From Halichondria panicea (taxonomy: Eukaryota; Porifera; Demospongiae; Suberitida; Halichondriidae): DNA of 64,000 bases. The position numbers and the translations under genes were made by a program. The stretch is from positions 3,353,502 through 3,417,501 of the forward strand of contig NC_087393.1 of NCBI RefSeq assembly GCF_963675165.1, in the 5' to 3' direction. This document shows positions 43,230 through 64,000 of the stretch, one piece after another; positions within the stretch are counted from its first letter, which is position 1, and every line of letters begins with the position of its first letter. The notes beneath the pieces are model-generated. The model saw only the letters and a list, made by a program, of their open reading frames with translations, was not told where the DNA came from and did no database searches.

Positions 43230-46200
43230 CTATATCTGCAGTATATCTACAGTGTTCGCTATAATCTCCACTTCGACATTCATTGGTGACAACTCCTTGC
43301 AATCTTCATTAGCAATTACACCAACTGACTCTCCATTTGTTTTTTCGTTTGCATCACCATTATCTTGAGTCTCATAGTCGTGTGCTGGCGGTGTTACATG
43401 ATTCAGTAGTAGGTTGGTGTTGCTGCTTACATGTATGTCACTATGCAGTGGAGACGACAGGAAGTTTTCAGACTGTCGCTTTTTCTATGGGAGAAAACTA
43501 TTCAGTTAACATGTATCATTAATACAAAAGATATGGAATCAACCCGTTGGATACCGGCCCTTCCCATAATAATATTTACGATAATTATGAGAAACACATA
43601 AAACAAAAAGTAATTAACTCACTTCTTTTATGTCAGTCTTGAGTGACTGAATGGTCTGCTTAAGCTGATCAACCTTGGCCTGGTCTTCAGAGTTACCTTT
43701 GTTGGTACTGTCCAGATAGTTGTTGCCCACGCTGGCCACAGTGCTAATATCCGTCTCACCCGAGGGGTTCTGGTAGAGCTCTATCATCTGGTGGTGGGAT
43801 ACGTGGGGGTGAGGTGTATGTGAGGGGGAGGTACTATTATAATGTAGTGTAAGGGCGGTGTTAAGAGTGATAGGGTTGCTTTGGAGCTATATACGTAGGT
43901 ACTACACAGGGTACATGTACGATTGGCATGCTTATTTTTACATGCATGTGTGGCTTTTGGGAACACTGAGATGAGAGTACATGTATTTTCATATAATACT
44001 ATACTCACCAATGTTCCAAACAAGGTGAACAAGATGACAGTTACCATGGAGAGAATGCAGAATCCGTACACTCCGTATGCCACACTAGAATCATTAACAG
44101 ACAGTCCCACAATGGTAGCCACCAGTGCCACGACAACAGTGGTGCACACACATGCTACAATCAGTTTGGAATCCCTCAATCTCTTGAGCTTGACATTATA
44201 CGTCTGTGTGGCTAAGAACACGCCCACCACGAGGTAGAGAGACTTGATGACCAGCAGGACGGGTATCCAAATGTTAGAGGCAGCTGACATACATTGATAG
44301 GCGAGCAGAGGAACCTCACCATCCTGAACATGGGAGAAAGGGATATCGACAAATTTACAGAGGCAATCACATGAGCACATGCATGCGCACACCGAGGTAT
44401 ACGGTAGTGTGTTTGTGTGTCTGTGAGTAGAGTGATACAGCTGCTGAATGACGTTTTCTTGGATTGATTTACAAAATAATGCTTCGTTCTCGAGTTAAGG
44501 CTAGTCTTGCTAACTTTGAAGGCTGTTGCACACTTGCGTAGCAAATCTGTGGATATAACTTAGCTATTCTACATGTACTTAGTAGTTAGTTCTGCACTAA
44601 AACGCTAGCTTCAAGAGTGAGAAAAAGAGCTGCAAAGCCACACTGTTTTAGCATTAGCTTGCAGCCATTAATAATTATGGACTCTGAACAGTTTTAGCAA
44701 TAATTATAGTCGGACATTTCCCACCATTCTCTGCACTGTGTAATGTAAATTGTAACTGTACACGACATTGTGTGCATGCATTTAATAATAGTCCGCTAGT
44801 ACTGTAGCTTCATTGACAAAGCCTCCACCGAGAGGCATCAGCACCCGCAGTGCTTTTATTATCAGCAGAAGCTCCACATAGAATTGTGACCCCCTGCTAG
44901 CCTCGGTTCCAGGCCGATTTTTTTTTTATAGAACAAAGTTGAAAATACGGCCTGGTATTGATTGTATATGGGCGTGGCAGGAACCGGAAACTAAAGCAGA
45001 GATTCTTCACACTTTGTTTCCTGTCATATTTCCCCGTATAAGTCTAATACCGTAATTTAGCTCCGTGTATGCTCTCAAGTAATAAAATCTAGCCATAGAT
45101 TGTCTAGCTAGCTAGCTATGGGAAGTTTAAGTTGTTCAGATTAACATATACATTGTCTTGCTTCACAAGAAGGCCCCACTCTCATTGCAGAACAGGCCCA
45201 ACTCTTGTCAGAAGGAAGAAATGTCTTTGCCTGGTTTTCAACATGGTATGGCATGTCTCTTGCTATCAATCACTGCCCTTTGTGGTGGACTACAAGCTAT
45301 TAATAGGTAGGACCAACACTGCCGGCCGTATAACGCGAAATTTTAGAGGGGCTTAATTTTCGCTGATTTCGTGGGGCTAATATAATCTGGCCTACACAAA
45401 ATTAAGTCCACGAAAATTGTTCTTTAATTAGCTATAACGTGCAAAGATTAATTAAAGGCGTGGCTTCCAGTAAGCAGTCATCCCACGAACATTGTGCAGT
45501 GAAATGTTTTTAGAGGCCATTCATGAAATATAAGTGCCTCGAAAATTTCGCGCTATACGGTATTATGTCGTACCTACAACTTAGTTTCAAAAATCTAAAC
45601 GGTTAGACAATGACTTACTGGGCGATCGATAAGATCCCTTTGTTGGAGCTTCCGTCGGAAAGAGTCTACAGAGACTATGATGAGAAACACCACGTCAACA
45701 CCTACCATCACCATGACAATGAGAAACAGCATCCAGTCTTTGAGAGGCTGCACATGCGTATAGTTTTCGGCCGATCAGCACCAATATATACCGTAATATT
45801 AATTTTATCTAATGAACATAAACTGTTGTGTATATTTTTGACATGCATCTCACTGCTCACTCTCTTCTTGAGTCTGATGTTCTTGAAGATGTAGTACACC
45901 CTCCATGTTTTGGCCAGCATGGTTCCAAAGAGAAGAGAGAACCCAATGGAGGCCAGCCATACTGACACCTGCAGAGGGTGAGGTAAACGTGTTATAGTAA
46001 GACCCTCATATCTGATTGTACATGTACAAGTTCTTGTTGAAAAGTTGTGTAAACTGATACTGACCATTCAATACTATACACACAACATGTACATGCATGT
46101 ATGATTTGCACAAGTACTCGTCCAGGTATTATTTCAGTGCAACCTAGTCTGTTTGTCGATCTAAGTGCAAGATAAACGGCAGGTATATTAATATCAATGA

Positions 46201-49200
46201 TCCTTTGAAACAGTTCAATTCATTGCTGACACTTCAGATCAGAATGGTAAATGTGCAATTATTATTTTATCTAGGGAAGTTTTGTTATTCGCTCCCAGAT
46301 TATATTTATGCTGCCAAGCATGAATGACTGGAATTCCAGATTATAATATGCGTAATTATTTGAACTCTTGGTATTATTATTATACATAAACAATCAACCT
46401 GAACCACACAAATTCTTGGAAGCATAGTAATTAACAGTTGAGAGAAGAACACAATTGTGTTAACATAATAATTATGCCCAAAGCACAATGTTTGTTAGGT
46501 CCATTTTACTTAGTGAACTGAGCATCTGTCATTTGAACAATCTTTGCGTACATACAAATACGTATGTATAGCTCAAAAGCACTTAAAGAATCAAAGAACC
46601 TCTGATCTCCTTATAGAATGAACATGTACCTGACAGCGCACAATGTCGACAGCAGTGAAATCTACAAAGTTGATGTCCAACCCAAACATGATAACCACAA
46701 TGTAGAAGAGAATAGCTCCTGATATCATGAGCAGGTTCAGATATGGACTGGACAGCTTGACAATTCTGCGGGAGTATATACGTTGTATTTAAAAGTGAGA
46801 GCATTATAATTATGCCTCGGTGTGCATGCGCAAGCGAGGTATACGGTAGTGTGTTTGTGTGTCTGTCTGTGTGTGTGTCTGTGTGTGTGTGCTGCACAAG
46901 AATCAATGAAGTGCAAGTAAGAGTTTCTATAGGCTTCTAGTCATGTTTTCTTGGATTGTAATTCGTGGATTTGCAAAATAAAGCTTCATTCTCGAGTTAT
47001 GCCTAGTTTTGCTTACTTGGAATGCCATTGCAGCCTTTTCAGAAGAGTCCGTAGCAAAACTTGTTCACCGAGAGTTACTACTCTACTTAGTAATTAGCTC
47101 TGCACTAGAACGCTAGCTATTAATATTGGTAGCTGCAAGAGTGAGCAGAGAGCTGCAAGGCTCTGCTGACTTGCAGCCATTAATTTTAGACTTGGAACTT
47201 TTGGCATCGATCGTTTTTAACAACAATCATGGTTGATCATTACCCACTATTCGCATGCAGAAAATTAAAGATGTTCAATGTGTGTATAAAAGCTAGCTAT
47301 TAGTAGTTTTATGTTATGTAGCTTTGGCACCTCCACCGAGGCATCAGCACCCGCGGTGCTTTCATTATGTCATGATTTACACGCAAGCATGAGAGTGTGA
47401 CACAATGCACATCATATACTCTAGTATGGTGGGACCTCTTATTCTGACCATGCTCAAGATCTGTGAAAGTGGCTGGATTAGGGAAATGGCTGGATTTCAG
47501 GGCAAGTTTATAATCATGTCAGAGTTTAGGCTACTTTAGTGAGGTGGGAGGAATTGAAAGGCTTGGAATAGAGAAGTTTCACTAGCTATAGAATAATTAG
47601 TTAAGTAAGTATATTTACAGTACGTGTGTACATATGAATATGTAGGTACAAGACTTACTCATTCAATGATTTCATTATTGTACATTACAATAAAGTACGA
47701 GGCAGGTGTAGTATCAGTATAGCTCACCGTTTTTTACGGAACACAAGGTTGAAGACCATGCAAGCAATGGCAAAGATGATGCCCAAACAGGCAATGATAG
47801 TGTAGATGATAAACAGCACCTGGCTTATTGTGACCAGCTCCGAATCCACCGTGACCCCATCTGTAGGAATTTGCACTCAATAACAGATTGAGCAACAGCT
47901 CTCAGATTATAGCATCAGCAATAAAACCTCCAGATTTGTACAGAGCTTTTAACGACACAAGTATTATGTTTTGCTTGCAGCTACAATGCACATGCATGGA
48001 TTTCCACTAATTATACAGTAAAACCTCTATCCGGCCGGGCAAATTTCTCTACAGCAGGGTCAAAGTTCAATAAAATGTTAGAAGATAGGCGTGTTTATCA
48101 CACATATCCTACATGTCTATTTGCATATTTGCACTGCTATTAATTAACAAAACTAGGCGTGGCTTATCCATTTGCTTATCCGGCCGGCATATTCGGCCTG
48201 GCTCTGGACAATTAAGGGGTCAAGATAATCAAGGTTCTATACTATAGATATTATGTAAGCTCTATGGACCAGCCCAACTCACCAGGAAAGACCGTCTGTA
48301 TACTGTGATCGGGCAAGAATGTCAGAGTACCGATGCTGTCCGCGAAAGCAAATGCAGTGTCATTGTTAGCATCAATGTTGGGGTCTACCACCTGCGTGTC
48401 TGTGCAGTTGTTATAGAGATTATCATGAGATGTAGTTGTTATAGAGATTATCATGAGATGTACTGGTGGGTAATTAAGTGCACTAAAATTGTAAATTTGG
48501 TGTGTAACTTTTCAAGGGGTTTTCTAAGACTCCATTCTAACAAAGGTTATTGTATAATAATAATTATGTATTATAATATTGGTTGTGCAAAGAAGAATGT
48601 GCCTGGCATGTTTTGAACTCACAGAGATATTGGTACACCTTTCTGACTGGCTCACGATCACCGAAAACGTTCAATTTGACCTTACCCTAAAGAGACCAAC
48701 AAGACACAAAACGCTAAAATAAAGTTGGTGCAAAAATGAAAGAAGAATTTAGGGAGTCACTTTAGGTGGCTGTTACAGGTGCATATATATACACACATCA
48801 CGACAACATAATCATTATCTTAAGGCATAGCTTGGATATGGCATATTCAGGTGGGAAGACCTACTTTCGAGTTTCATTGTACATTAAAGAAACAAAAAGG
48901 AAGTCTATCTGTAAATATGAATCCTACATGCAAAGATGCAACCATTAAGCAAACAATACACTTACAGAGACTCCTTGGAAATTTGAATTTCGGGCTGCGT
49001 TGAGAATAAGTTGATTAATTTCTCTAGTGACCGTCGAATTGAGGAAATGGTTGAACTGTTCCAACCTGTTTGCTCCTAGTACGGTCCCATTCTGCAGCTG
49101 TGTAGAGGTCGTGTTGAGAGCAATTGCAGCTATCCATACTGCATCGTACACAAAAGCCGCCTGTCTCAGGGCTTCACTGCGAGGGTAGTTAAGGCTGTTT

Positions 49201-52165
49201 AGATTACGCTCAAAATCTGTCCAGAAAGCACCTGGAGAATCCTATATGAGAAAAGACACATACAATCATTGTTTGCTTACACTGTACTGACTATAATGGC
49301 ATTCAGTTTTAACGAAAGATTAGCCCAGTGTCAGCATGCTTCTACGTAGCATACACACGCCTCACTTAAATCATAATATACACACCCCAAAACTCCTCCT
49401 CACACCCTCACGTCACTCACATATCCCACATCTGTCCGAGCATTCATCTCCTCCTCCAAGGGGGTTGGGAAGTGGTCGACCGCCAGAGACATAAAGATGG
49501 CATTAGTAAGCTCCTGTACTGAACAGTTTGAGCCAGACTGGTCAGTCCACCAAAACTCCGACCACCAGTAATGGCTGATGAATGTGTAACGCGGGTGTAT
49601 CATCCCCCTTTTGTATGCCTATATGTGTGAGGGGTGGGCTGAGTGTTTATACTATGAGAGGTGGAGGTAGTGAGGTACAAAATGCATGACTATGAGAGGT
49701 GGAGGTAGTGAGGTACAAAATGCATGACTATGAGAGGTGGAGGTAGTGAGGTACAAAATGCATGACTATGAGAGGTGGAGGTAGTGAGGTACAAAATGCA
49801 TGGGCACATGTTTAAATGATCAAAAATATGATCAAAAATACAAGGGTCAAAGGAGAAATGCAGGTGTAGTTGCAAGGGTCACTTCCTCTGCTCCCTTTGT
49901 AGTCTTAATCGATATCAACTATGACCAAGCATTCCATTATCAACTAATCAGACTAGTATGGTAACGTGAACTGATTAGGTGCAGATTAGCACTGCTATAT
50001 ATAGCCCATACACGTACACAAGAACAACACAGGCATCCAAAACAAACATAACAGTGTTGCAGCACACTGTACACACATACACTGTACACACATACACTGT
50101 AGACACATCATTCGGTTATTCACCCAGTATACAGTGCATGTGCAAACCATGCACATGGCTAAATTCTGCACTGACTGTTTAGCTACCTACATGTCCGGGT
50201 GCAAATAGTACTAACGTAATTATCATGCGCATAACATAATGGACAGGAACATGATTACTCACCAAACAAAATATTTGTCTTGCAGCATCTTCATAGATAT
50301 TTAACAGAACAATCCTGGCCCCTGACGTCTGGAAAATTGATATGAATTACGTTGCATCAAGTCCACATAAAGCAAAAACAAATTAATGTTTACATAAATG
50401 TATACGGACTCTAAACGAGACATGTGATGCATTCATCTGCTTACATTGAGTTGATCAACAATGTTCTCCAACCGTAAGTTAGTTTCACTTGGTGTCAGTC
50501 CACTATCATAAGGGAACGGCAGCACCCTCACATTTTCCTGCACCAAGACAGCATTCTGCACACTGGTCAACTGAGGGAAAGATGGGCATCAAGTAATAGC
50601 ATAATATCATCACATGAAACAGATTATTCAATCACATCAAATAGAGTTAGTTTCAGCAAGGACACTAGTTTCCTGGAATGCTAAGGCAACTGTTACACTC
50701 GCACACTCTCACAGTGTCGCTCCACACACCCTCACAGTATATCCACACACCCTCACAGTATCCCTCCACACACTCTCACAGTGTTGCTCCACACACCCTC
50801 ACAGTATCCCTCCACACTCACACACCCTCACAGTGTCCCTCCACACCCTCACAGTGTCCCTCCACACACCCTCACAGTATCCCTCCACACACCCTCACAG
50901 TATCCCTCCACACACCCTCACAGTATCCTTCCACACACTCTCACAGTATATCCACACACCTCACAGTATCCCTCCACACACCCTCACAGTGTCCCTCCAC
51001 ACACCCTCACAGTATCCCTCCACACACTCTCACAGTATCCCTCCACACACCCTCACAGTGTCCCTCCACACACTCTCAATCACACTTATAGACTCACATT
51101 GGAGAATAGATCGTCCCTCACTGACACAATAGCCACTTGCTTCCATTCAAACTTTCTGGCGAGTGCTGCTACTGTGGCAATGCTGGCATTGTCCGAGGAG
51201 ATGGTTCGCAGGAAGTTAGGAAAGCGTCTCTTGTTTGATAGGGATACAGAGGTGGTAGTATAGCCGATCTGAAAGAGATAGTAGAAATTGATATCATATC
51301 TGCTTACAAAATAGTATTCTGTAGTTGCACCCTTGCCCTGCGTAAGAAATTATTGTTTTCAGATACCATATAACTATTAGCAAGGGAAAACATCTGAGGA
51401 ATATATAATCATACATACAGTGAAATCCGTCGTCTACATGTATACATACTATACTTTCCTACAGTTAGGTCCTGCTCAAAGTTAGGAGCTGTGAGACACA
51501 CCCTTATTAGCTGTGACAGCTAGCCCATACATTTTCAGTACCTGTGTTAGACTGTAGAATGGAGCCACTTCGGCTGTGGTGAACGCACCCACTGAGCAGC
51601 CCGGACCAATGATCATGTAGCGCTGATCCTGCTCCCCTTGGACTAGTGACAGCTGGTTAATGAACGCTCTGATGGCAGCCAACTGATCACACTGTGTGTG
51701 CCGGGGGGGGGTTGGCTTGGTGTTACACATTACGTAGAGTTTTACATACATACGACGTAGCATACGTGAATGAGGTGGGTGTGGTTGTGAAGGAAAGTAT
51801 GTGTACGTGTTTATAGATGTTACTATGTGTTATAGAATTAGGACGTCATGCTGCTCTCTATTTATTTGTCGTACCATGGTATTTTCAACTTGCAGTTTCA
51901 ATCTGTAACCACTTAACAGATTAGACTCATTAGCAATCTTTTGCACTGCCATTTGTGCTGCTACAGTTAGTCCTCTTGCTCTAAAGCCTGCTACATTGCA
52001 AGGGAAAAGCGCCATCACACTCAACAGAGTCTTGGTCTTTGGAATATCCTGGCAAATCTCCAGTGGATTGTTCCTACAGTCACTATCACAGAGCAGAATA
52101 GAATAACATTCCCAGGGGAGGCTGACCATATACAAAAAGCCCAAAAGCACAAAGTAAGACTTCAT
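43230..52165 (-). CDS. GABA-B-like class C GPCR, paralogue A
   Basis: Sixteen exons (51875-52165, 51542-51691, 51098-51268, 50445-50570, 50263-50328, 49421-49618, 48966-49241, 48623-48686, 48283-48399, 47728-47860, 46630-46765, 45861-45968, 45619-45747, 44009-44323, 43623-43787, 43230-43484) encode 899 residues. A signal peptide is followed by a Venus-flytrap domain: ALFPCNVAGFRARGLTVAAQMAV, IIGPGCSVGAFTTAEVAPFY, FPNFLRT, IVLLNIYEDAA, AFVYDAVWIAAIALN. Seven membrane helices start VTISQVLFIIYTIIACLGIIFA, with KLSSPYLNLLMISGAILFY next, and a C-terminal tail has a short heptad stretch (DQLKQTIQSLKTDIKE). There is no Cys-rich domain, which fits GABA-B and not mGluR/CaSR. A Ser in the GCS motif and a Tyr in NIYEDAA sit where GABBR1 contacts ligand; other ligand contacts are not confirmed. 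Intron 3 holds a 23 bp minisatellite. Confidence 0.9.
44384..44863 (+). repeat. R2 interspersed repeat, copy in receptor A intron 13
   Basis: The head remnant GCGCACACCGAGGTATACGG is followed by TAGTGTGTTTGTGTGTCTG, the core (TTTTCTTGGATTGATTT, TCTCGAGTTAAGGCTAG) and the tail CTCCACCGAGAGGCATCAGC with a hairpin AGCACCCGCAGTGCT. The overall length is about 480 bp. Confidence 0.75.
45130..45310 (+). pseudogene. Decayed RecQ-like helicase fragment, second copy
   Basis: Nucleotide similarity to 35700-35880 is evident in order: TGTCTTGCTTCACAAGAAGG, CTCTTGTCAGAAGGAAG, a Walker A region reading ACATGGTATGGCATGTCTCT (TGYGKS site altered), and TGGTGGACTACAAGCT. Frames are broken and the rest of the helicase is absent. 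It lies in receptor A intron 13, between an R2 repeat and a TIR element. Confidence 0.7.
45327..45564. mobile_element. TIR element CCGTATAACGCGAAATTT
   Basis: The left end GCCGTATAACGCGAAATTTT is mirrored by AAAATTTCGCGCTATACGGT. GGGGCTTAATTTTCGCTG follows the left end, as at 28170-28392. It is about 238 bp with no ORF. Confidence 0.78.
46812..47368 (+). repeat. R2 interspersed repeat, full copy
   Basis: The head TTATGCCTCGGTGTGCATGC pairs with GCGAGGTATA. Next are ATACGGTAG and a TGTGTGTCTGT microsatellite, then the core (TTTCTATAGGCTTCTAGTCA, TCTCGAGTTATGCCTAG), and the tail CACCGAGGCATCAGCACCCG with hairpin AGCACCCGCGGTGCT and terminal TTTCATTATG. The head ATGCCTCGGTG and tail CACCGAGGCAT are inverted. 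It lies in receptor A intron 10. Confidence 0.85.
48014..48242. mobile_element. pogo/Tigger-like non-autonomous element, copy 2
   Basis: The left end TACAGTAAAACCTCTATCCG and right end AATCAAGGTTCTATACTATA are imperfect inverted repeats, with TATCCGGCCGG near both ends. It lies in receptor A intron 9. Confidence 0.65.
49640..49802. repeat. 38 bp tandem repeat, about four copies
   Basis: The unit runs CTATGAGAGGTGGAGGTAGT then GAGGTACAAAATGCATGA and repeats almost without change. It lies in a receptor A intron, between exons 49421-49618 and 50263-50328. Confidence 0.88.
50693..51082. repeat. 23 bp minisatellite, about 16 copies
   Basis: The unit is CACACCCTCACAGTATCCCT plus CCA, with variants (GTGTCCC, CTCTCAC) and occasional shortened units. 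All three plus-strand frames stay open by chance of composition, giving His/Pro/Ser-rich ORFs that I do not consider genes. It lies in receptor A intron 3, ending about 16 bases before the exon at 51098. Confidence 0.9.
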
Positions 52166-52417
52166 TTTGAGAGAGTCAATTTTCTGTAGAACTTTTCTTG
52201 TTGCATACGTAGGTACTAGGTAGATCTAGCTACTTTGTAGATCTATAGCTATTTTAATGTTAATTACTTCAACATTTTTGATGAGCAAAACTTCACCGGA
52301 AACACATTAATAATTATTATTGACTCTGTAGATATAATTATAATGTAATGAGCTTGGAACAGATTTTATAAGATTTTTACAAGAGCTCGGTTCTTTGATG
52401 TTCCAAGAGCTATCAGT
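52166..52417. promoter_or_regulatory. Divergent promoter region between the two GABA-B-like receptors
   Basis: 252 bp separate the two start codons. It is AT-rich (runs of TAATTATTATTG and ATAATTATAATG near 52310-52345), with ATTTTATAAGATTTTTAC close to the plus-strand start. No certain TATA box was assigned. Confidence 0.5.
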
Positions 52418-55400
52418 ATGAGAGATTCACCTTCTACGCTACTAGTGCTGTGTGCCTGCCTGGCCTTAGCTCAAGGACAGCTAACTAACATCACTATAAC
52501 TGTCTTCATAAGTGGGCTCAGTACAAACACAACAGATCAAGGTCAAGACAAAGTGGTTTTTGTCAGGGACTTGGATGGGCGACAGTTCCAAGCAGCAGTG
52601 GACCTGGCTGTAGAAGCAGTTAACAATCATTCTCAAATACTAGAGGGCTACAATCTGCAAGTAGAATATGTTGATTCACAGGTACATCTACATGTAGTTC
52701 ATAAATCATGTAGATCTAACCAAGATTCTATTATGCATAGATTTATGCATAGATAGTCTTGTTTACACCCTGTACTGTACTGTCTAGACCTAGTTAAGTT
52801 ATGCTGCTCAATTTACAGTTACAGTAACAAATCATTCTGCAAATTGCATTCATTGATGCAAACTTAGATACGCACGCACACACACACACTCACGCTCAAT
52901 CATACACACGAACACATACATTATACACTCACTCACGCACGCACACACACTCACACACATGCACATGCCACAGTGCTCAGCTGGGTCAAGTGTTCAAGGT
53001 TTCATTGACCAAATCTTTGACCCAACTGGGAGACTCCTCATCATTGGCTCTGACTGTTCCACGGCAACAGAGCCAGTTGCTGAGCTGGCACCTTTCTGGG
53101 GACTAGTGCAAGTGAGCTCGAAATAATTAATTAACCTGTATGCAAGGATACAATACACAGTAGACTAAGCCGCCCTTAGTGATAACTACCTGAAATTCAA
53201 TGTTCTCTGGAAGTAATTACCTACAACACATAATTATAAACATAATTATATATGTTTATAATTATGTATAAGTATACTTATACATAATTATAAACATAAT
53301 TATGTATAAATATACTTATAGGGATGTGAATAGCTATGTTCACCTTTTTACTTTCACTTATAACATTGTGACTTGCCCACCTAACCCACCCTCCACACAC
53401 CAGATATCTCCTCTCTCTTCTGGCCCTAATTTGGTGGCAGTGGACTCTCCTTTCACAACCTTCCTTCGTCTTGTTCCCTCAGATACAGCAGCTGCAATAG
53501 GCGTGGTCTCACTGATGGAGCAGTTCAACTGGACACGACTGGGGCTAATCACTCAACAAGAATTATCATTCACCTCTGTAAGTGGATGGATGTACCGTAT
53601 TTACTTGATTAAACGCCCTCCTTGAATAAACACCCAGGGTAAAAGCTCTGTCTTTGTCAATAAACGCCCATCTTACGGTCAACCATTTGCTCATTAATTA
53701 TTCATGAGCTAGATCTAGTGATCTTTTCCAGCTAGAATGAGCTGGAAGTCCAGCTGAAACGCAGTAGTCATTTCATGGCTTGAATATACATTTTTACTAT
53801 AAAGCTTAGGTATAGTCTACTGTAGCTTCACTATATGCAGGGCGGGTCGAAGAGATATTTCGAAAAAAGGCTACAATATACTGAAAGCTCACAAGAGGCT
53901 GTTTTCCTTGGCTCTGGCCGCCATTTTAAGTGGAGTTAGTCTACATATTATTATTTTGTGAGAGTTTGTTGGCCTGGAAAGAAAAAAACGCTTCGACCCG
54001 CCCTCCAGAATGGTAAGAAGCATCATATAAGAGCAAGAACACAGAGCTAGAAGTGTTTTTGGAAGTTTAAAATGACTGCTAGTTTTGTGTTGTTTCTAGT
54101 AACTTGATGATCGCTCAGAGCTTCCACTGGAAAATGTTTTGAAGACTGATACTTGTCATACAGGATGATACACCAATATATTTATCTTGTGTGTGCTTCA
54201 AATTTTTATCATGGCATTATAGTTTCACAAAAATCATTATAAGAAAATCATGAATATTCATGAGCAAACTGTTTACCGCAACCTTAAATAATCGCCCATA
54301 TATGGGGCGTGGCACTGTGGGTGGAGCTGAAATAGCACATGGAACCCGTTGCAAGCATGGCAGCATAGAATAATAATACTTTTTATGATGCATCGATGGC
54401 AGAGAGAGAGATACCGACACAGAGGGCACTCCTATGACTTAAATTTAAGCTGAGAAATAGATTTAAGCTGAGACAGCAGCCCAAGAATAGCACAATAACT
54501 GCTGCTGTGCAAGAGTTTTAGAGGAGACATAACAATAAACGCCCTCCTGGATTAAACGCCCCCTCTAAAGACTTCCATCTGAAATAAACGCCTGGGTGTT
54601 TAATCAAGTAAATACGGTACATGGATAGCTGTAATTGTAATTATGTTCTAGACATGGTCATTTTAACCTACATGTAACCAAGGGCATATCGACCAGTCCA
54701 CAAAGGTCGAGCTACGTCCTTAATTAACCTATAATATGATAATGATCTAAGCGATGTGTCTTGAAGCCATTGCTCATATTATTAGTGATCAACTGATATT
54801 ACATGTAGTGATCAACTGCAGGCAAGAAACATGTTTATAATTATGTCATACCATTTGAAACACTCCTGCTGTGTGTTTTGTCAGTCAACTATATTACAGT
54901 CATGAGCCAATTGCTACAGGCATGCCCATTATTCTAGAACTTGTAAGTATATACTCGCCCAGTTTATATTGATCAGTGAAATATAAATACAGTAGAACCT
55001 CGATTATCCGGCCCTCCATTATCCGGCTTGGTAATTTTCTTTTTAATAATTCAGAAATGGGCGTGTCTCTTAAATGTGCATTGCAGCTGTTACTATGGAG
55101 ACAGGCCTGCTTATCTCTTGCGCATGCGCAGACAACCATGTTTATCAATAAAGTGGATGGATCAAGGTGTGGTTTATTTTGATTATCAGTTATCTGGCCT
55201 GCCTCTGGAACCAAGGTGTCCGGATAATCGAGGTTGTATTGTACTGGTATTGCATACAACATAATTACAAGACCTAGTACTATTCCATATGTAACTGCAG
55301 GTCCAATCATCTTGGTACAACAAAGTATTATATTTAGGCACAATCCATATTATAGTGTGTAGATTGCTCGCTGATTGCTGTTAACAGTGTAAGGAAGGAA

Positions 55401-58361
55401 CTGCAGCTGTTTTTTTCCTAGCACAATGCACCAGTACCTTACGTACTATGTACATAAATAAAGGAAAGAGGAAACAGAAACATCCTTGTGGTACAGTCCG
55501 TGTTTCCCCGCTGCCTTCTAGCATGCAAGAATACGATTCCAAGACTTAACCAGTACAGTAGTATCTGTGATGGCAAATGGAGTTGTTAGAGGCACTGTAC
55601 GTGTAACGATGGTTATAAATAGAACACTCTATAATTACTTGTGTTTTGGGTGAGATCCAGACACCCGGCCACAGCTATAAAAGGCGGCTTACCTCGAAAT
55701 TTCCCCCAATAAAAACACAATCGAGGCACTGGTCAAGACAGTTTATAAACAATACCTACCTCTCTGAATGGTCGTTTTTCAAGCAGCTTAGTTAACGCTA
55801 TCATGCACAGTCAATTTAATGCGAAACGCGGATGAGATCAATAGCCTTCTAACCACAAGCATCAAGCCTGCATGTGTGTAGCATGTGATCTGCTTCTATT
55901 TCCAATTCCTTTATGCTATTGCTGACGAATAGCACCAACTTGTGGTAATAAAATACATAGGAGCATGCAAAGCATTTTGGGGGCGAGCGTGAGCGAATTG
56001 TGTATCGATCTTGTTATAATTAAGGTATAGGTAGACATAACTGAAAATTGACGATGTGAAGCTGCAAGAATTCCAAAGATGATAGCTTTGAGTGAAAGTG
56101 AATGTTCAGCCTAGCCGAATGTTAAAAAAGCACAGCAGTAGATCTAATGCCAAAGCTGAGTCAAAAGAGCTGAGTGCACAGCCCAAAAGGAGGAGCAAGG
56201 TTATTTCAAGACAAATATGGCTCCTGCTGGACCCAGTACAAACAGTAAACATGTACATGTTGGAACACATGTGTTGATGACAAATAACCTTCTAGCAAGT
56301 CTGCTGTGACGTGCTGCAGGCGTGCCTATGCAATCAAGAGTCTCTGTGTCCCATGAGCTTGCAACCATTTGCCTAGCTTATTGTACGCATGCGCAATAAT
56401 TCACGTAGAAGTTGGTAAAGAATTATGAGTCCCAAAAGCAAATAATTATCGTGCCAGTCCAAAAAGACAAATTGCAGCATTGATGACTAGGTACCGTAAT
56501 TGATGTAATTACAGCGCCACCATAATTTAAGCGCCATGTCAGCATCAGCATAATTTTTTAGGTCCTAAAAGAGCGTCAACCGTTGCTGGAATTATTTTTT
56601 TCTGGCGCTTATAAAAAGGCTTGTTTGAGACATCAAGCTAGACAATCATCCTGCATCTTTAACTTCCTTCACTTCCTAACAGTTGTCTAACCCATGCTAC
56701 AGTCAATGAATGTTGTTCACGAGTCACTCAGCTCTCACGGTGCAGCTAGCAAGTGAAACTGAGCTAGACCACGCCCATTTTCTCTACGAATTCTACTAGC
56801 TGTAGAACATAAGCGCCACCATAATTTAGGCGCCAGCTGGGCTGAACGCAATTTTAAAAAATGTGCTACTCAGAAGTGGAATTAATTTTTTCTGTCGCTG
56901 TAATTACATCAATTACGGGTATGTGTACACATTACTCCACCCAGACCGCCAGCCGTCTGATGGAACTGTTTGAGGAGAGGAACTTCACCACATACAGCCA
57001 CACCTTTAACACGGGTGAAAACCCAGTGAACACTTTCCGCAATTTATTGGTGAGTTTCTTCAGGTGTGTTTGCAAAGAATTTAGAATTATTACTTCATTG
57101 TAGAATTCTCCTGCAAGAATTATCTTCCTCAACGTTTACCCGTCCTACGCACTCGAAATACTCTGTCAGGTATATCCCCCACACATGCACACACGTACTC
57201 AATAACATCAATTATAGTACGTACTGGTTGAGGTGTTTAGTGTATTTAACTATTGAGACTGGGCCTTATGTATATTGTCATTGCATGTACTAGAATTCTT
57301 GAAATCGGTACTTTTACTTCATTATGCCTCGGTGCGCATGCATAAGCGAGGTATACGGTAGTATGTTTGTCAGTCTGTGTAGACTGCTACAGCTGCTCAA
57401 GGATCAATGAAGTGCAAGTAAGAGTTTCTATAGGCTTCTAGTCATGTTTACTTGGATTTTAATTCGTGGATTTGCAAAATAATGCTTCGTTCTCGAGTTA
57501 TGCCTAGTTTTGCTTACTTGGAATGCCATTGCAGCCTTTTCAGAAGAGCACGTAGCCAAACTTGTTTATCGAGTGTCGCTACTCTACTTAGTAGATAGCT
57601 CTGAACTAGAACGCTAGCTATTGGTACTAGAACGCTAGCTATTGGTAGCTACAAGAGTAAGAAGAGAGCTGCAAGGCTCTGCTGATGCAGCCGGCCATTA
57701 ATTTTAGACTTGAACTTTTGGCATCGATCGTTTTTAACAACAATCATGGTCGATTATTACCCACTCTTTGAGTTTTTGCATGCAGCAAAATTATAATTAT
57801 TGCAAAAATGTTCATCATGTGTATAAAAGCTATTAGTAGCTATGTTATGTAGCTTTGGCATCTCCACCGAGGCATCAGCACCTGCGGTGCTTTCATTATG
57901 ATCATGCATGCTTATTGAACAGGCCACAAATAGAGCATAATTATATGGTACACTCACCTACAGGCACATCGGATGGGCCGTACATTCTCTGAGGGCTACC
58001 TATGGCTGCTCTACTCTTGGTACCCTCAGGAGTGGTGGACAACTGGCGCTGTCTATGACACTACTTGTCGGTCAGAGGAAATCCAGAGTGCTCTGGACCA
58101 TGCCATTATCATTGACTACTTGCCTTTGAGTGATGAGGCCGAGGGGAGGGAAGAAGAGACAGATGCTGGCCTAGTGAGTGAGCGTACTTCATATTTTATT
58201 GTTTTGACCCTTTACCAGGTTGGTAAGAAGATTTATTTTATGTTACTGTAACGTAACCCTTTACCAAATGGATATGGGACTGCATTATTCCCGGTAATGA
58301 ACATATATTTATGCCTCAAGGCATAGCCGCACGAGGGATACAGTAAAGCTGACTGTGTGTG

Positions 58362-58445
<84 letters not shown>

Positions 58446-61400
58446 CCAGCTGTAACTGCTCAACAGTTGCAATGCGACAAAAACTAACAGCTTCTATAGG
58501 CTTCTAGCCACATTCTCTTGGATTTTGATTCGTGGATTAGCAAACTAAAGCTTCTTTCTCGAGTTATGGCTAGTTTGACTAACATTGAAGGCTGTTGCAG
58601 TCTCTTCAGAATCTTTCATAGCATCATATGTTCGCACAAACTTTCTATTCGAGTTAGCCTTGCACTAAAACGCTAGCTACAAGAGTCAGAAAAGATCTGT
58701 TAAAACTGCTAGCTATAGTAGCCATTATTGTGAACTAGTTGGGCGTGGCTCGACCGTCCCTGACGGGAGGTCGGGTTGCAAGCCTATCTGGGATTTGTTC
58801 TAGCGCCACTATATAGCGCCACTATAGTGGCGCCCTATCAGATTGAAGCATTTTTCACGTGCTTGGTTACACTTCCGTTTGCATCTAGTTGCAAAACCGC
58901 ATACAAGTGTATGCTGGTCTACACGTCATCAAGTCGGTTAACACCCACTTGAGAATAACAATATTCATAGCAGTGTTACGTAATGCAGCAGGACAAATCC
59001 CAGATAAGTTTGCAACCCGACCTCCCTTTAGGGACGGTCGGACCACGCCCAACTAATTGTGAACTTGATCTCTTTGGACACACCCTTTAATTATTCCTGT
59101 GGATGCAATGCGCATGCGCGCTCATCCCCACATGTTAGAAAATCCAGTGGCAGAATCAACTTACTTCTTTTTCTTGAGGTCCTGGCATACCGGTAATTAA
59201 GCCACAAAACAAATGATACCATATAGACTAGATAACAATAGATACATGTACACAAGTCTTTTCTTCTCAGTATTAAATGCACACTTTCTGCTTGTTTATA
59301 TACTATACTGTCTGTGCTATACTACTGTCTGTGCTTAAATTTACTCTGTGCCTTTGACAAAGGTTTGCTCCCACTGTTTGGCTACAGGCCATTAAATAAC
59401 TGCAGTTGCTTCAGTATGATCGTTGATTGAATTCTGTGATTGAATTGTACTTATCTCACAGAAGCACATTGCAATTTATTTACCTCTTCTACAACACTCT
59501 AATACTTTTGAGCAAAAGCAAAAACATGGCGAGAGACATTAGCAAGCAACACTCGTTTACTCTAGTGACCCACCAATAGTGTAGTTAGCCTTGAGACCAG
59601 GCTGTTTGTTGACAGAAAGAACGCCTCGTCAAGTTCCTATATAGAACTCGTGTTGCTGAGTCAGGAATTTTTTTGACCGATAATTAACTGCACGCCCACA
59701 GCCGGTTGTGAATATGATTATAGACAATCATTCCACGGTTAGTACGATCAGCTAGCTCATGTATGATCGATTATGCGCGTCATGTCCTGTGTGGCATATA
59801 GGAATTAACTTGACCAGGCGTTCTTTACAGCCTGGTATCGAGGTTAGTATTAACTGTATGTACCCATTGCCAATGCATGTCCCTCCCTATTGCATAATTA
59901 GAGTGGTAAGCCGTTAGAAGCATTTTAGGTAATTGTTACTGACCCTTTACTCTATCCTCAGACCCGTGCCCAATACGAGAGACTGCTCAGGGAGCGAATA
60001 GATGAAGTAGGTGCAGATGACTCTTTCTTCAACCTTACACACCTCTATTTTGATGCTGTGCTCATGGGAGCCCTTGCACTCAACACTACAAACGGTAAGT
60101 GTGTGCTTTGTTTACATCCTGTGGCAGATCCAAGGGAGTTTCATATGAACCACCCTTTTGGATGATGTCTAAGAGATCTGATCAACAACATGCTAGCTAT
60201 ACGTATTAAAACACTGAGTTAGCCAAATATGTCACTTGTTTTACACACTCAGTAATTTCCTTAGCCAAGATTCTTGCCACTGTGCGTGGGTGTAAACACG
60301 TTTGAAATAGGCCCTGATAAATTATGCTCGGAATGTAGCATAATAGGTGTCTAAAGAAATAATACGCATCAATGTCCAGTTTTGGTAAAAATCATTACAT
60401 TAAGTTTTGCATAACGACATATTCAGAGCAAAAAATGGCTGAAGGTGAATATTATGGATTAGTTCAAGTCAGCAAGATAACAATTATGTCTTGTGTCAGT
60501 TGTGTGCTGTGTTTATGTATATATAATTTTCTATGTCACATTTTTTAGGGGATACATGTACCGTATTACTAGAATATTTTGCGGGCGAAAACACCTTTGC
60601 GAATGAGCCAAATCAGCAGAAAATTTGACTCTTTGCGATCAACTATTAATAGCGTTTTGGCAAGGATCGTGTGTATTTACTAGTAATAATTTAGGTTTTG
60701 CAGATTTTATTGTTGCAAATTGATCAACCATCACAAAGTTCGAAAATGTTTGATGCTCACAAAACATTCTAGTAATACGGTAATCAGATTTTTGATGAGA
60801 ATAATCGGATTTATTATCGGATTTTATGAGAATAATAGGCACATTTTTCAAGAATTAAAAAATAGAATAAATTTATCAGGGCCTATATAGTTTGAAACCC
60901 CCTTTCTCCTATTTCCTGGATCTGCCACCGACACCCTCTACAACATGCTATGTACATGCTATGTTACAATGCCACAAGCTGGCCCAGTAGGTGGGGCCCG
61001 AGATCAGGCATGTGATCTACTTTGTTGCATGGAACAATTTGCTGCATAGAAACCATACCACCACATGAGTTCCTCAGGCACCACAAATAGCTAGTATGGA
61101 GGATGGCCTCTGGTCTCCAAAGATAACTTTACCCACGGTGCAATAATTATACTTATAGCGCTAAAGTTTCGAGGCGCTTAATTTTTTCGCTGTTTTCGAG
61201 GGTTAACAATCCTCCATGAATTAGGCCGACTAAATACTTAGCTAACCATGTCGCGAAATTTATTGAACGAAGAAATTTAAATGCCTCGTGCTATACGTAT
61301 CATACAGTACGTAAATTATATTGGCACTCACCACAGTGCACTATAACATTTTATATCAGGGACTGATCTCAGAGATCAAAATGCAACTATAACAACTAAT

Positions 61401-64000
61401 ATTTGTGGCCATCCCTCCGATAATGTACATTTTGAAACTTGCACATGTAGCATGCAGTATTTTCCTCTACTACTGTTACAATGTGTATAGGCAGTGTGGT
61501 AATGACAGTGTACTGCAGTAACATACCTAATAAGGCAATATACGATGTACAGATTATTCGAACTGCCGTTTAGCCCAAATTGTGTTGTTGTTGTCAAAAA
61601 AATGTTTACCCTTGTGCAGCAATGTACAATATCTCCATGTTCAACTATAACACTACGGACATGGTCTCTATCAACATTACCAATACAATACTGGCAGCTG
61701 CAATGGGACGGAGTTTTATGGGTGTCTCAGTAAGTGTCTTTTATTATAACCTTTCATACATGTGTAACTAGCTTAATGATACGTATGTGATCAGCTATGC
61801 ATGGAAGAATTTGAAGTAGGAAACCATAGCTGTTTGTTTGAGCTCACAATTGTATAACTTACAGTGTAAATGTGTCATAGTTATTATGACCTTGCATGTT
61901 GTTTGAACTGTGTTAATTACATTGTGTGATGATTCGTTGTAGTAACCTCCCTATTTGTGGTGTACTATAGTGATGCCATCATAGCAATGAGCTCATATTC
62001 TGAGCTCCATGAATATGATTAGATCCTACACTGTACTGTGTCATACGTACTGTTAGTCTGTCATGTACATAGTACGTGTAGTGACATACCTACGTGCAGG
62101 TGATTGGTGTTTGAAATAATTATTTTCTTAGCTATATATACAGTCATGTGTTCATAAACTTCCTCTGACTCTGAAAGCGTTGATGCATAGTGATACACTT
62201 TGTGTGCATTCAGTTTATTATAAACAAACATGTTGTCTATTGCTATATCAGAACTTTCTGCTTTGGATTGTAACATAAAAATTATTATCAGCTAAGCTCG
62301 GTTTGTTCGTTCCTGACCCGGGTCCATGTATGTGCATGCACTTGCGTATTTATCATTTCCTGAACTGCTCTTTGTGTTGCAATTGATGGTTTGATGATGA
62401 TTGTGCAGGGGTTAGTGAACCTTGGGGGTAACAGAGAGATTGCTCCTGTCATTAGTTTCCGTCAGTACCGAAGTGAGTGACACACACACTGTGTATGTGT
62501 TCTGCATGTACAGTACAATACGTACAGCTAGGGTAATTGCCAATAATTATTGAACCTGATAATCACACAATAATTATATGTTTTCACGTAGCGAGTGGCA
62601 ACCAACAACTGGTGTCCATTTTCATTGGGAACGATTCTTACTTTCAGAATGCAGATGAAGTATTTCCCTGTAAGTTGAAACTTAATCATCAAAGGGATTC
62701 TATTTCTCAAGTGTTATCATAAAGTAGTGTTTTAATTTGACAACGAAATTAGTCACCCTGAATGTTGTTTTCCCTCGATCTTAGCTCCTGGAACTCCAAC
62801 TGATGAGCAATATGTTTTCATCTCTGAACCCTTGTTCATCGTCTACACCATCTTATCCTGTGTGGGCATCCTGTTTGCGTTTGTAGTGGCTCTCTTTCTT
62901 TGTGTCTTCAGGCAACGAACGTGAGTGTATATTAATGCCGTCTTTTCTTGCGGCCTGGTTTGAGACTAAGTATCGATATCCCTTCACTACTGTATACTTA
63001 ACATTATAAAGCTCTGTTCGTTCACCCATACTATCACCACACTATCCTAGTGTCAGTTACAGCTACTTTTTGATACATGTATATACATCCTTGAAGCCTT
63101 TGTAGACTACCGTACATAGCGTGATTAAGTGGTTCAGTCTCTAGCACACCCACAACACAATCTAAGTGATTTTCCACATCTCCACACAGGGTGATCAAGC
63201 TGTCTAGTCCCCTACTGAATATGCTCATCATTGGTGGTACAGTATTGTTCTATATTGACGTCATCCTGTTCGGTATCGACATAGGAACCTCCCCCTTTTC
63301 TACCGTCACTGCTCTCTGCATGGTGAGATGCTCACTTACTCTGCTTTGTTCAAAATATCCTGATCTGTATTATTTATATAATTGCCAACCCAGTCCATGC
63401 ACCTCTGACACGTACTATTAACTCACAGTAAATGCAATAAAATTATAGTGATTCTAACATCCTGTTTGGTGATCAATAATACGAACAAGATTAGTTCATC
63501 TGTTCAAAGACCCTTAAAAATGCCGAATATTGACTTCACCCTGTTATTTGTATGGCTATAGCCATGGGAATTGTAAGGCTGTTGCAATAGTTGACATAGT
63601 TATAGTTCAAGTACAATAACAGTGACTAATGAACTCGTATATAAACAAAGGAAGCCTTGTGTAACTGTTAGGGTAGTGATGCAGTATCACATATCATATA
63701 TTTATACATGCACGTTCTTGCAATGATAACGTAATGTAAATACCCCCCCCCCCCCCCCCACTGGGATGTGTACCTCATTGCTTTGAGCTGCCAATAATAT
63801 TCATATGGTGGTGGTTGTTATAAACTGTCTATTTTGTTGATGTTTTTTTATCACTAACTCTGCTTTGTCTCCATTCACCCACCCACCCAGATTCGACTAT
63901 GGGTGACCACCTTCTCTTTCTCCCTCCTGTTCGGTCCCATCTTTCTCAAGATCTGGAGAGTCCATTACGCCTTCTTCTCCAGAAATAGAGACAAGAAACG
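52418..64000 (+). CDS. GABA-B-like class C GPCR, paralogue B (3' partial)
   Basis: Thirteen exons (52418-52681, 52974-53111, 53404-53577, 56945-57049, 57104-57169, 57964-58173, 59962-60094, 61620-61729, 62409-62472, 62592-62669, 62785-62920, 63190-63322, 63891-64000) encode about 570 residues before the window ends. A signal peptide (STLLVLCACLALAQG) is followed by a Venus-flytrap domain: FQAAVDLAVEAVNN, LLIIGSDCSTATEPVAELAPFW, TTFLRLVPSDTAAAIGVVSLMEQFNWTRLGLI, ARIIFLNVYPSYALEILC, LYSWYPQEWW and LYFDAVLMGALALN. The membrane region begins FIVYTILSCVGILFAFVVALFLCVFR, then KLSSPLLNMLIIGGTVLFYIDVILFGID and FSFSLLFGPIFLKIWRVHY. The exon structure closely parallels paralogue A (identical lengths for the 66 and 64 base exons and the 133 to 136 base membrane exons), so they arose by duplication. 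Intron 3 (3.4 kb) has three transposons. Confidence 0.9.
53220..53322. repeat. AT-rich nested palindromes
   Basis: Alternating TATAATTATAAACATAATTA and ATGTATAAGTATACTTATAC units create several overlapping inverted repeats. It lies in receptor B intron 2. Confidence 0.7.
53593..54619. mobile_element. 1,027 bp TIR element TACCGTATTTACTTGATTAA
   Basis: The left end TACCGTATTTACTTGATTAA(ACGCC) is exactly mirrored by the right end, ending TTAATCAAGTAAATACGGTA (GTTTAATCAAG just inside). Subterminal AATAAACGCC words repeat on both sides. No transposase ORF. Its inside matches the relic at 17110-17540. It starts 16 bases after a receptor B exon ends (53577). Confidence 0.9.
54988..55243. mobile_element. 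pogo/Tigger-like non-autonomous element, copy 3
   Basis: The left end TACAGTAGAACCTCGATTAT (then CCGGC) and right end CCGGATAATCGAGGTTGTAT are inverted, flanked by TA. The inside matches 29587-29822 over most of its length, including GCGCATGCGCAGA. Confidence 0.85.
55250..56491. other. Inner part of receptor B intron 3, nothing recognised
   Basis: AT-rich sequence with short ORFs only. I found no exon, RNA gene or repeat shared with the rest of the window between the pogo-like element and the element at 56492. Confidence 0.5.
56492..56918. mobile_element. TACCGTAATTGATG TIR element, copy 2, next to a splice acceptor
   Basis: The left end TACCGTAATTGATGTAATTA and right end TAATTACATCAATTACGG are inverted. 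The inside closely matches 30391-30802 (GGTCCTAAA, CTGGCGCTTATAAAAAGG, GTGAAACTGAGCTAGACCAC). It ends about 26 bp before the receptor B exon at 56945. Confidence 0.88.
57322..57899 (+). repeat. R2 interspersed repeat, full copy in receptor B
   Basis: The head TTATGCCTCGGTGCGCATGC, ATACGGTAG, core and tail CACCGAGGCATCAGCACCTG ... GGTGCTTTCATTATG are in the same order as 46812-47368. It has an internal duplication of CTAGAACGCTAGCTATTGGTA near 57607-57640. It ends about 65 bp before the exon at 57964. Confidence 0.85.
58311..59546 (+). repeat. R1 interspersed repeat, copy 4, interrupted
   Basis: The head ATGCCTCAAGGCATAGCCGC is followed by a (GT)n tract of about 90 bp (58351-58443), the core and the tail AAAACATGGCGAGAGACATT. 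It is interrupted by a nested TIR element at 58738-59053 and by extra sequence at about 59280-59490. It lies in the receptor B intron before exon 7. Confidence 0.8.
58738..59053. mobile_element. TIR element GTTGGGCGTGG nested inside an R1 repeat
   Basis: The left end GTTGGGCGTGGCTCGACCGT is mirrored by the right end (GGTCGGACCACGCCCAAC), with long inner inverted matches around GGTCGGGTTGCAA. TA flanks both ends. The interrupted R1 words (GCCATTATTGTGAACT / TTGTGAACTTGATCTC) confirm insertion. A GCGCCACTATA direct repeat occurs inside. Confidence 0.9.
59582..59850. mobile_element. TIR element GCCTTGAGACCAGGCTG
   Basis: The left TAGCCTTGAGACCAGGCTGT and right ACAGCCTGGTATCGAGGTTA are inverted, and AGAACGCCTCGTCAAGTT faces AACTTGACCAGGCGTTCT. 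About 270 bp, no ORF. Partial words of this family (CCTCGATCCCAGGCCG) recur at 35439, 41275 and 44898. Confidence 0.75.
60559..60782. mobile_element. TACCGTATTACTAGAAT TIR element
   Basis: The left end TACCGTATTACTAGAATATT is mirrored by ACATTCTAGTAATACGGTA. GGGCGAAAACACC and GAATGAGCCAAATCA follow the left end. It is 224 bp and lies in a receptor B intron. Confidence 0.85.
61150..61310. mobile_element. Degenerate TIR element of the GCGCTTAATTTTTTCGC subfamily
   Basis: The left AGCGCTAAAGTTTCGAGGCG and GCTTAATTTTTTCGCTG match the starts of 28170-28392 and 45327-45564. The right end is GCCTCGTGCTATACGTA. About 160 bp; the ends have decayed. Confidence 0.55.
63744..63760. repeat. Poly(C) tract
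   Basis: An unbroken run of about 17 C residues in the receptor B intron before the last visible exon. It is a likely site of sequencing or assembly length error. Confidence 0.8.

What the first reader, a model, noticed from the sequence alone, without database searches (positions are those of the whole stretch)
43230..64000. Head-to-head pair of GABA-B-like receptors
Two class C receptors without a Cys-rich domain start 252 bp apart on opposite strands and share intron phases and several exon lengths, so they are an inverted duplication. Vertebrate GABA-B receptors are obligate heterodimers of two paralogues encoded at unlinked loci. A shared promoter could give matched expression of two partner subunits. 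Pairing is inference; duplication is visible.
Basis: partly seen in the sequence, partly recalled or inferred. Interest (0 to 1): 0.72.

Follow-up and report, generated by a model that had tools for sequence, protein, structure and literature searches.

The report
Back-to-back pair of GABA-B-type receptors
Two intact but very different receptor genes of the GABA-B type sit back to back 252 bases apart in a compact animal genome; the layout looks ordinary for such genomes and nothing here shows that the two proteins work as partners, though one of them keeps contact residues of the known receptor pair that its neighbour lacks.

Summary
Gene A (minus, 16 exons, 896 aa, 43230-52165) and gene B (plus, 17 exons, 820 aa, 52418-65735, 1735 bp past the window) are intact class C receptors without a cysteine-rich domain; their ATGs are 252 bp apart. 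Both match GABA-B subunits far above other class C receptors. The intron argument for an inverted duplication is weak: paralogues elsewhere in the genome share the same introns. Trees favour A and B as sisters (92/89; 84), but the TM-only tree separates them and AU tests do not exclude splits. A or B joined to GBR1 or GBR2 is rejected, so this is not the vertebrate pair. The gap is ordinary locally: neighbouring gaps are 198 and 269 bp, and almost a third of Amphimedon genes appear to use bidirectional promoters (PMC4773876). Partner evidence is mixed: a heptad-like C-tail motif is in 8 of 9 tails examined; B keeps the H3.55/E5.60 latch of GABA-B subunits, A has Y/Q. Both lack the GABA-amine contact E349. 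Interpretation partly supported; heterodimer unproven.

The parts
43230..52165 (-). Gene A, GABA-B-like class C receptor, 896 aa, 16 exons
   Evidence: Exons (1 to 16): 51875-52165, 51542-51691, 51098-51268, 50445-50570, 50263-50328, 49430-49618, 48966-49241, 48623-48686, 48283-48399, 47728-47860, 46630-46765, 45861-45968, 45619-45747, 44009-44323, 43623-43787, 43230-43484. Pfam ANF_receptor and 7tm_3. phmmer best hit GBR2 chain 6uo8_B, 286.7 bits.
52418..64000 (+). Gene B, GABA-B-like class C receptor, 820 aa, 17 exons; runs on to 65735 in window-continued coordinates (locus L009)
   Evidence: Exons (1 to 17): 52418-52681, 52974-53111, 53404-53577, 56945-57049, 57104-57169, 57964-58173, 59962-60094, 61620-61729, 62409-62472, 62592-62669, 62785-62920, 63190-63322, 63891-64004, 64350-64484, 64679-64993, 65253-65387, 65583-65735. 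Pfam 7tm_3 and ANF_receptor. phmmer best hit fly GBR2 chain 9jqx_B, 318.5 bits.
52166..52417 (.). 252 bp between the two start codons; must hold both core promoters unless there are upstream untranslated exons
   Evidence: GC 30.6% against 41.3% for the window. Transcription starts not known.
51542..52165 (-). A exons 1-2: signal-peptide-like start and first part of the Venus-flytrap domain
   Evidence: signal peptide judged by eye.
43623..43787 (-). A exon 15: C-tail exon with short heptad-like stretch VDQLKQTIQSLKTDI
   Evidence: As a heptad it is not significant alone (526 of 5000 shuffles as good).
44009..44323 (-). A exon 14: TM5 to TM7; position 5.60 is Q
63891..64000 (+). B exon 13 (to 64004), TM3 region with H at position 3.55
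   Evidence: E at 5.60 is in exon 15 (64679-64993).

Best explanation
A and B are two old, intact paralogues of the metazoan GABA-B receptor type (Venus-flytrap ligand domain joined directly to seven transmembrane helices), arranged head to head in a gene-dense stretch. They most likely arose from one ancestral gene by an old duplication that left them back to back (favoured, not proven), and the 252 bp between their ATGs probably carries overlapping or shared core promoters (inferred). Each probably works as part of a dimeric receptor that senses a small carboxylate-bearing metabolite (inferred): the carboxylate-site serine S130 and the aromatic Y250 and W278 positions are kept (B also keeps S153), while E349, which salt-bridges the GABA amine in GBR1, and the contact H170 are not, so GABA by the vertebrate mode is unlikely. 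B keeps the full GABA-B TM3-TM5 contact pair H3.55/E5.60 and could form the canonical dimer latch with itself; A has Y/Q there. An A-B heterodimer is possible but is one option among several (A-A, B-B, or with other paralogues).
For: Intact 16- and 17-exon models, ATG gap 252 bp; complete ANF_receptor and 7tm_3 domains. GABA-B subunits score far above other class C families: A 286.7 bits GBR2, 237.4 GBR1, 75.4 GPR156, 55.6 T1R3; B 318.5 fly GBR2, 269.1 fly GBR1, 252.2 human GBR1, 101.9 GPR156. No Cys between LBD and TM1. Trees: A+B 92/89 (32 of the 35 sequences in hand) and 84 SH-aLRT (quick, 44 rows). GBR1 and GBR2 form their own clade (95/86; 80/84 in the 15-row full tree), and A or B with GBR1 or with GBR2 is rejected, p 0.00007 to 0.004. 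Ligand positions S130, S153, H170, Y250, W278, E349 of GBR1: A S,T,I,Y,W,Q; B S,S,V,Y,W,L (contacts in PMC6429233, passages read). Latch: B H/E, A Y/Q (residues from PMC12499500, passages read). Gaps on either side 198 and 269 bp.
Against: Sisterhood is not firm: the 15-row full tree leaves A and B unresolved, the TM-only tree puts A outside B+GBR (91/91), the LBD-only tree joins them (85/81) with a long-branch warning, and in the LBD the highest identities are A-L040 (28%) and B-L023 (29%), not A-B. AU tests do not reject four trees that split them (p 0.06 to 0.41). No expression data, no transcript, no second species: shared promoter and ligand are inference. The ligand-site reading rests on one alignment at about 30% identity, and the contact W65 was not examined.
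Confidence: 0.7

Rival explanations
1. One reading: A and B are the two partner subunits of an obligate heterodimer, co-transcribed from one bidirectional promoter for matched expression.
For: Head-to-head at 252 bp. Divergent order is rare among neighbouring class C receptor loci here, 5 of 67 pairs against 60 same-strand. Both C-tails hold a short heptad-like stretch in homologous exons; B has an RSR in its tail, and human GBR1 carries an RxR retention motif near its coiled coil (PMC12499500, passages).
Against: The C-tail motif is in 8 of 9 tails examined, so it does not single out this pair. RxR occurs in 588 of 5000 shuffles of B's tail. Latch residues do not match between A (Y/Q) and B (H/E), while both human and fly subunits carry H/E. 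Neither looks like a GBR2-style non-binding partner: A matches 3 and B 4 of the 6 GBR1 contacts, human GBR2 1 of 6. Tight divergent spacing is common in Amphimedon (PMC4773876).
Confidence: 0.18
2. Chance neighbours: two old GABA-B-like paralogues that came to lie head to head by rearrangement; the spacing reflects gene density alone.
For: 30% identity, a branch path of about 2 changes per site and trees that do not exclude non-sister placements. Neighbouring gaps are equally short. In L017 a second head-to-head receptor pair lies 464 bp apart (worked out from the ORF places) and its members are not each other's nearest kin (quick tree).
Against: A and B are each other's nearest rows by path length, in all three trees and, which would be a coincidence for unrelated arrivals.
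Confidence: 0.25
3. A and B are the orthologues of GBR1 and GBR2, so the vertebrate heterodimer pair would once have been a head-to-head pair.
For: Two GABA-B-like genes side by side; both in the unrooted group with GBR1, GBR2 and L037 (100/99 in the full and TM-only trees, 87/87 in the LBD-only tree).
Against: AU tests reject A+GBR2, B+GBR2, A+GBR1 and B+GBR1 (p 0.00045, 0.0040, 0.00007, 0.00028). GBR1 and GBR2 group with each other (95/86).
Confidence: 0.03

Closest known systems
GABA-B receptor subunits GBR1/GBR2 (human; fly dGB1/dGB2, PDB 9jqx and 9jr0)
   Same: VFT domain joined to 7TM without Cys-rich domain; best PDB matches; B keeps H3.55 and E5.60, which PMC12499500 describes as highly conserved in both subunits across bilaterians (passage); S130, Y250 and W278 positions kept in both; short heptad-like C-tail.
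   Different: Not orthologous to either subunit; H170 and E349 not kept; A lacks the latch residues; C-tail heptad stretch much shorter than the five heptads given for human in PMC7411975 (passages read).
Amphimedon queenslandica glutamate-family GPCRs (PMC4302439, abstract and passages read)
   Same: That paper reports 33 glutamate-family receptors, two of which clustered with human GABA-B in one tree but not stably in a larger set.
   Different: No gene order in the passages seen ('tandem' and 'intron' occur 0 times in its main text); whether those two correspond to A and B could not be tested.
Bidirectional promoters of Amphimedon (PMC4773876, abstract and passages read)
   Same: Head-to-head genes with transcription starts within 1 kb: 11,379 genes there; [quoted passage not shown]
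   Different: Those use annotated transcription starts; here only start codons are known.
Own-genome multi-exon class C family (L014, L023, L024, L037-L042 modelled; L043-L055 in part)
   Same: Largely the same intron positions and phases; in seven of nine loci read by eye a C-tail exon beginning like xxxLYKDPxG.
   Different: Neighbours mostly on the same strand (all class C loci). The unrooted branch between the others and {A, B, L037, GBR1, GBR2} has 100/99 (full). Of the 12 own-genome rows compared none but B carries both H3.55 and E5.60.

Membership tests
GABA-B receptor type (class C, GBR) | VFT domain joined to 7TM with no Cys-rich domain | tested here: met
   Full-length Pfam hits to ANF_receptor and 7tm_3 only, besides a sub-threshold Peripla_BP_6 in B; 0 Cys in the linkers of both.
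GABA-B receptor type (class C, GBR) | Closest to GBR among class C receptors of known structure | tested here: met
   GABA-B chains fill the top 17 rows of each table; GPR156 comes next.
GABA-B receptor type (class C, GBR) | Residues that contact GABA in GBR1 (S130, S153, H170, Y250, W278, E349) | tested here: not met
   A matches 3 of 6, B 4 of 6; H170 and E349 are absent in both. Human GBR2 itself matches 1 of 6 in this alignment.
GABA-B receptor type (class C, GBR) | TM3-TM5 inter-subunit latch H3.55 and E5.60 | tested here: inconclusive
   met by B (H, E), not met by A (Y, Q). Of 12 own-genome rows only B has both; L037 has E5.60 only.
GABA-B receptor type (class C, GBR) | C-tail coiled coil | tested here: inconclusive
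   Motif [VI]xxLxxx[VIL] in 8 of 9 tails (motif chosen after seeing them; 118 to 919 of 5000 shuffles per tail have it). The heptad score is not significant singly for A (526 of 5000) or B (1615 of 5000).
GABA-B receptor type (class C, GBR) | Orthology to GBR1 or GBR2 | tested here: not met
   four AU tests, p 0.00007 to 0.004.
GABA-B receptor type (class C, GBR) | Obligate heterodimer at the cell surface | not testable with these tools
   Needs co-expression, surface and signalling assays.
mGluR/CaSR/T1R type | Cys-rich (NCD3G) domain between VFT and 7TM | tested here: not met
   0 Cys in the linkers; no NCD3G hit.
Bidirectional-promoter gene pair | Head-to-head with transcription starts within 1 kb | tested here: inconclusive
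   ATGs 252 bp apart; transcription starts unknown.
Bidirectional-promoter gene pair | Co-expression of the two genes | not testable with these tools
   No expression data at hand.
Inverted tandem duplicate | The two genes are each other's closest relatives | tested here: inconclusive
   92/89, 84, 85/81 with warning (LBD); unresolved in the 15-row full tree and contradicted in the TM-only tree; splits not rejected.
Inverted tandem duplicate | Gene structure shared by the pair beyond what the family shares | tested here: not met
   A shares 12 of 14 mapped introns with B and 12 also with L040, L041 and L042.

The most novel reading that the evidence does not exclude
A and B form a two-subunit receptor that evolved independently of the GBR1/GBR2 pair, with the subunits kept together by one bidirectional promoter, an asymmetric TM3-TM5 interface (H/E on B, Y/Q on A) and a ligand other than GABA. 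It would be a second origin of the GABA-B-like heterodimer, in an animal that (if it is a sponge) has no neurons.
Probability: 0.15. Interest if true: 0.7.

Novelty: new member of a known kind. Interest (0 to 1): 0.37.

Why it matters
It is still open when and how often GABA-B-type receptors became two-subunit machines. A linked pair of GABA-B-like genes in what is probably an early-branching animal, one keeping the dimer-latch residues that are conserved across bilaterian GABA-B subunits and one not, gives a defined set of proteins (A, B, L037 and a member of the expansion) on which homodimer against heterodimer can be tested. As it stands the pair is a useful annotation rather than a surprise.

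Tried and rejected
Rejected: shared intron phases as proof of an A-B duplication (family-wide). Rejected: A/B as GBR1/GBR2 orthologues. Rejected as a special promoter element: the palindrome TAGATCTA occurs twice in the 252 bp and 9 times in the window (mean 1.19 in shuffles), but it and other short palindromes are over-represented across the 281,033 bases of own-genome sequence counted (26 against 4.4 expected); none of the 55 fetched loci has two copies within 20 bases. Not used: the RSR in B's tail (588 of 5000 shuffles have RxR). A scan of prokaryote genome contigs gave 87 pattern matches, none a relative (bacteria and archaea only, so uninformative about animals). No second animal genome was available, so conservation of the pair was not tested. 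Paper searches. Nothing in the titles, abstract starts and passages that I saw reports this head-to-head pair; most listed papers were not opened and subscription papers are mostly not held. Passages were read of PMC4302439, PMC4773876, PMC12716839, PMC6823388, PMC12499500, PMC6429233, PMC7411975 and PMC4704026; no paper was read whole. One search failed on a temporary file name and was repeated.

Rows dropped: of 35 sequences, L043, L045 and L055 (short) were left out; L046 and L050 also, which added 14 single-exon receptors from loci in hand (L004 and L034 are one gene; several other single-exon loci in hand, among them L001-L003, L005, L006 and L018, were not added). One search used 15 chosen rows, 13 for the LBD tree. 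In one search nine loci were read for tails: L039 ended too soon and L037 had a different tail, so the 9 tails tested are A, B and seven paralogues (L042 without the motif). The single-exon receptors were not checked for latch or ligand residues.

Full report
What is there. The window is G000:C17:3353502-3417501 of a 131 Mb genome in 39 contigs. A is on the minus strand, 16 exons, 43230-52165, 896 aa. B is on the plus strand, 17 exons, 52418-65735, 820 aa, and its last four exons lie past the window. All introns are GT-AG, no stop interrupts either frame, and the start codons are 252 bp apart. Transcripts were not available.

What the genes are. Full-length Pfam scans give complete ANF_receptor and 7tm_3 domains: A 162.2 and 144.4 bits, B 130.3 and 152.6. 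In phmmer against PDB chains A scores 286.7 bits with human GBR2, 237.4 with GBR1, 75.4 with GPR156, 55.6 with T1R3 and 32.1 with mGlu1. B scores 318.5 with fly GBR2 (9jqx_B; fly by PMC12499500), 314.4 with human GBR2, 269.1 with fly GBR1, 101.9 with GPR156 and 40.9 with mGlu1. The stretch between the ligand domain and TM1 has no cysteine in either. Both are therefore class C receptors of the GABA-B build.

The family around them. The genome gave 123 stretches matching the 7tm_3 family (150 candidates scored), merged by my rule into 102 loci. Nine multi-exon paralogues on nine contigs, one of them C17 itself, were modelled and thirteen more in part; these models are automatic. They share gene structure with A and B: A has 12 of its 14 mapped introns (of 15) in common with B, but also 12 with L040, L041 and L042, and 11 with L023 and L037 (same phase, within 4 columns). 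The two A introns not counted with B differ by 7 columns and are probably the same introns.

Are A and B sisters? In the 32-row tree they are (92/89, just short of a star); in a quick 44-row tree too (84). In a 15-row set the full alignment does not resolve it, the ligand domain joins them (85/81, with a warning that long branches meet) and the TM part puts A outside B plus GBR (91/91). By path length each is the other's nearest row in all of these trees, but in the ligand domain the highest identities are A with L040 and B with L023. AU tests do not reject four trees that split them (p 0.16, 0.062, 0.41, 0.28), and the TM data do not reject A+B (p 0.265). I call it favoured, not shown. On the unrooted 15-row tree {A, B, L037, GBR1, GBR2 human and fly} is set apart from the other paralogues at 100/99 (full and TM; 87/87 for the ligand domain); with mGluR-like outgroups A+B branch at the base of the multi-exon expansion (98) and L037 falls outside GBR, so the root and L037's place are unsettled. 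A or B with GBR1 or with GBR2 is rejected (p 0.00007 to 0.004), so this pair is not the vertebrate pair.

Is the layout special? The gap to the left neighbour's open reading frame (41970-43031, plus strand; a sub-threshold MPLKIP match) is 198 bp and to the right neighbour (a single-exon class C receptor on the minus strand, 66005-68311) 269 bp, so 252 bp is the local norm. In Amphimedon 11,379 genes are head to head with starts within 1 kb and almost one third of genes appear to use bidirectional promoters (PMC4773876, abstract and passages). Against that, among neighbouring class C loci less than 25 kb apart, 60 of 67 pairs lie on the same strand, 5 are divergent and 2 convergent, so receptor duplicates here are mostly same-strand tandems. 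A second tight divergent receptor pair, 464 bp apart, lies in L017 (worked out from ORF places), and its members are not nearest kin.

Do they look like partners? Three features were checked. (1) Ligand site: at the GBR1 contacts S130, S153, H170, Y250, W278, E349 (PMC6429233, passages: S130 and S153 bind the carboxylate, E349 the amine) A has S,T,I,Y,W,Q and B has S,S,V,Y,W,L; human GBR2 has P,T,V,D,W,F. Both keep the carboxylate side in part and lack the amine contact, so neither is a clear GBR2-like silent subunit and neither is a likely GABA receptor in the vertebrate manner. Among the paralogues E349 is matched only in L042 and H170 only in L024. (2) C-tail: each has a short heptad-like stretch in a homologous exon, but the motif is in 8 of 9 tails examined and the heptad score is not significant for A or B alone. 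It is a trait of most of the family. (3) TM3-TM5 latch: H3.55 and E5.60, described as highly conserved in GB1 and GB2 of bilaterians (PMC12499500, passages), are present in B and, of 12 own-genome rows, only in B; A has Y and Q. I placed the two positions by their spacing to hGB2 K583 (3.59) and to the leucine/phenylalanine at 5.53 named in that paper. B could make the canonical latch with itself; an A-B dimer would need other contacts. If B is a sponge gene, the latch residues predate bilaterians or arose twice.

Most likely working. Inferred: two dimeric Venus-flytrap receptors for a small carboxylate, transcribed outwards from a short common region. Shown: gene structure, family, spacing, residues. 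Not shown: expression, ligand, dimer partner. The obligate-heterodimer reading stays possible (0.18).

Known or new. GABA-B-like receptors in sponges are in print: in Amphimedon two receptors clustered with human GABA-B, unstably, among 33 of the family (PMC4302439, abstract and passages). I saw no report of this pair in the listings, which cover open-licence papers only, nor in the passages opened. I file it as a new member of a known kind.

Noticed in passing
G000:C7:3208136-3298281, minus strand: Array of multi-exon GABA-B-like receptor genes, all 18 7tm_3 hits on one strand.
   Followed up: partly
G000:C3:342141-434796, plus strand: Array of about 20 class C receptors (21 7tm_3 hits), most of them long single open frames, all on the plus strand.
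   Followed up: no
G000:C11:6027715, 6626392 and 6806204: Three class C receptor copies with identical ANF E-values (2.3e-25), one inside a 1532-aa open frame and without a listed 7tm_3 hit: very recent duplicates or an assembly effect.
   Followed up: no
window 50702-51078: Minisatellite in intron 3 of A, 23-bp unit, 16.4 copies, 86% matches; it gives long spurious open frames.
   Followed up: partly
window 58354-58444: (TG)n, 45.5 copies, in intron 6 of B.
   Followed up: no
own-genome stretches counted (281,033 bases): Short palindromes are strongly over-represented: ATAATTAT 219 against 11.5 expected, TACATGTA 118 against 13.6, CATGCATG 63 against 7.2 (order-2 model). Cause unknown.
   Followed up: partly
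L037 (G000:C10:225500-232000, minus strand): A third GABA-B-like gene that groups with GBR1/GBR2 in two trees (94/96, 99/98) but not in the quick tree; it keeps E5.60 but not H3.55 and its C-tail differs from the rest.
   Followed up: partly
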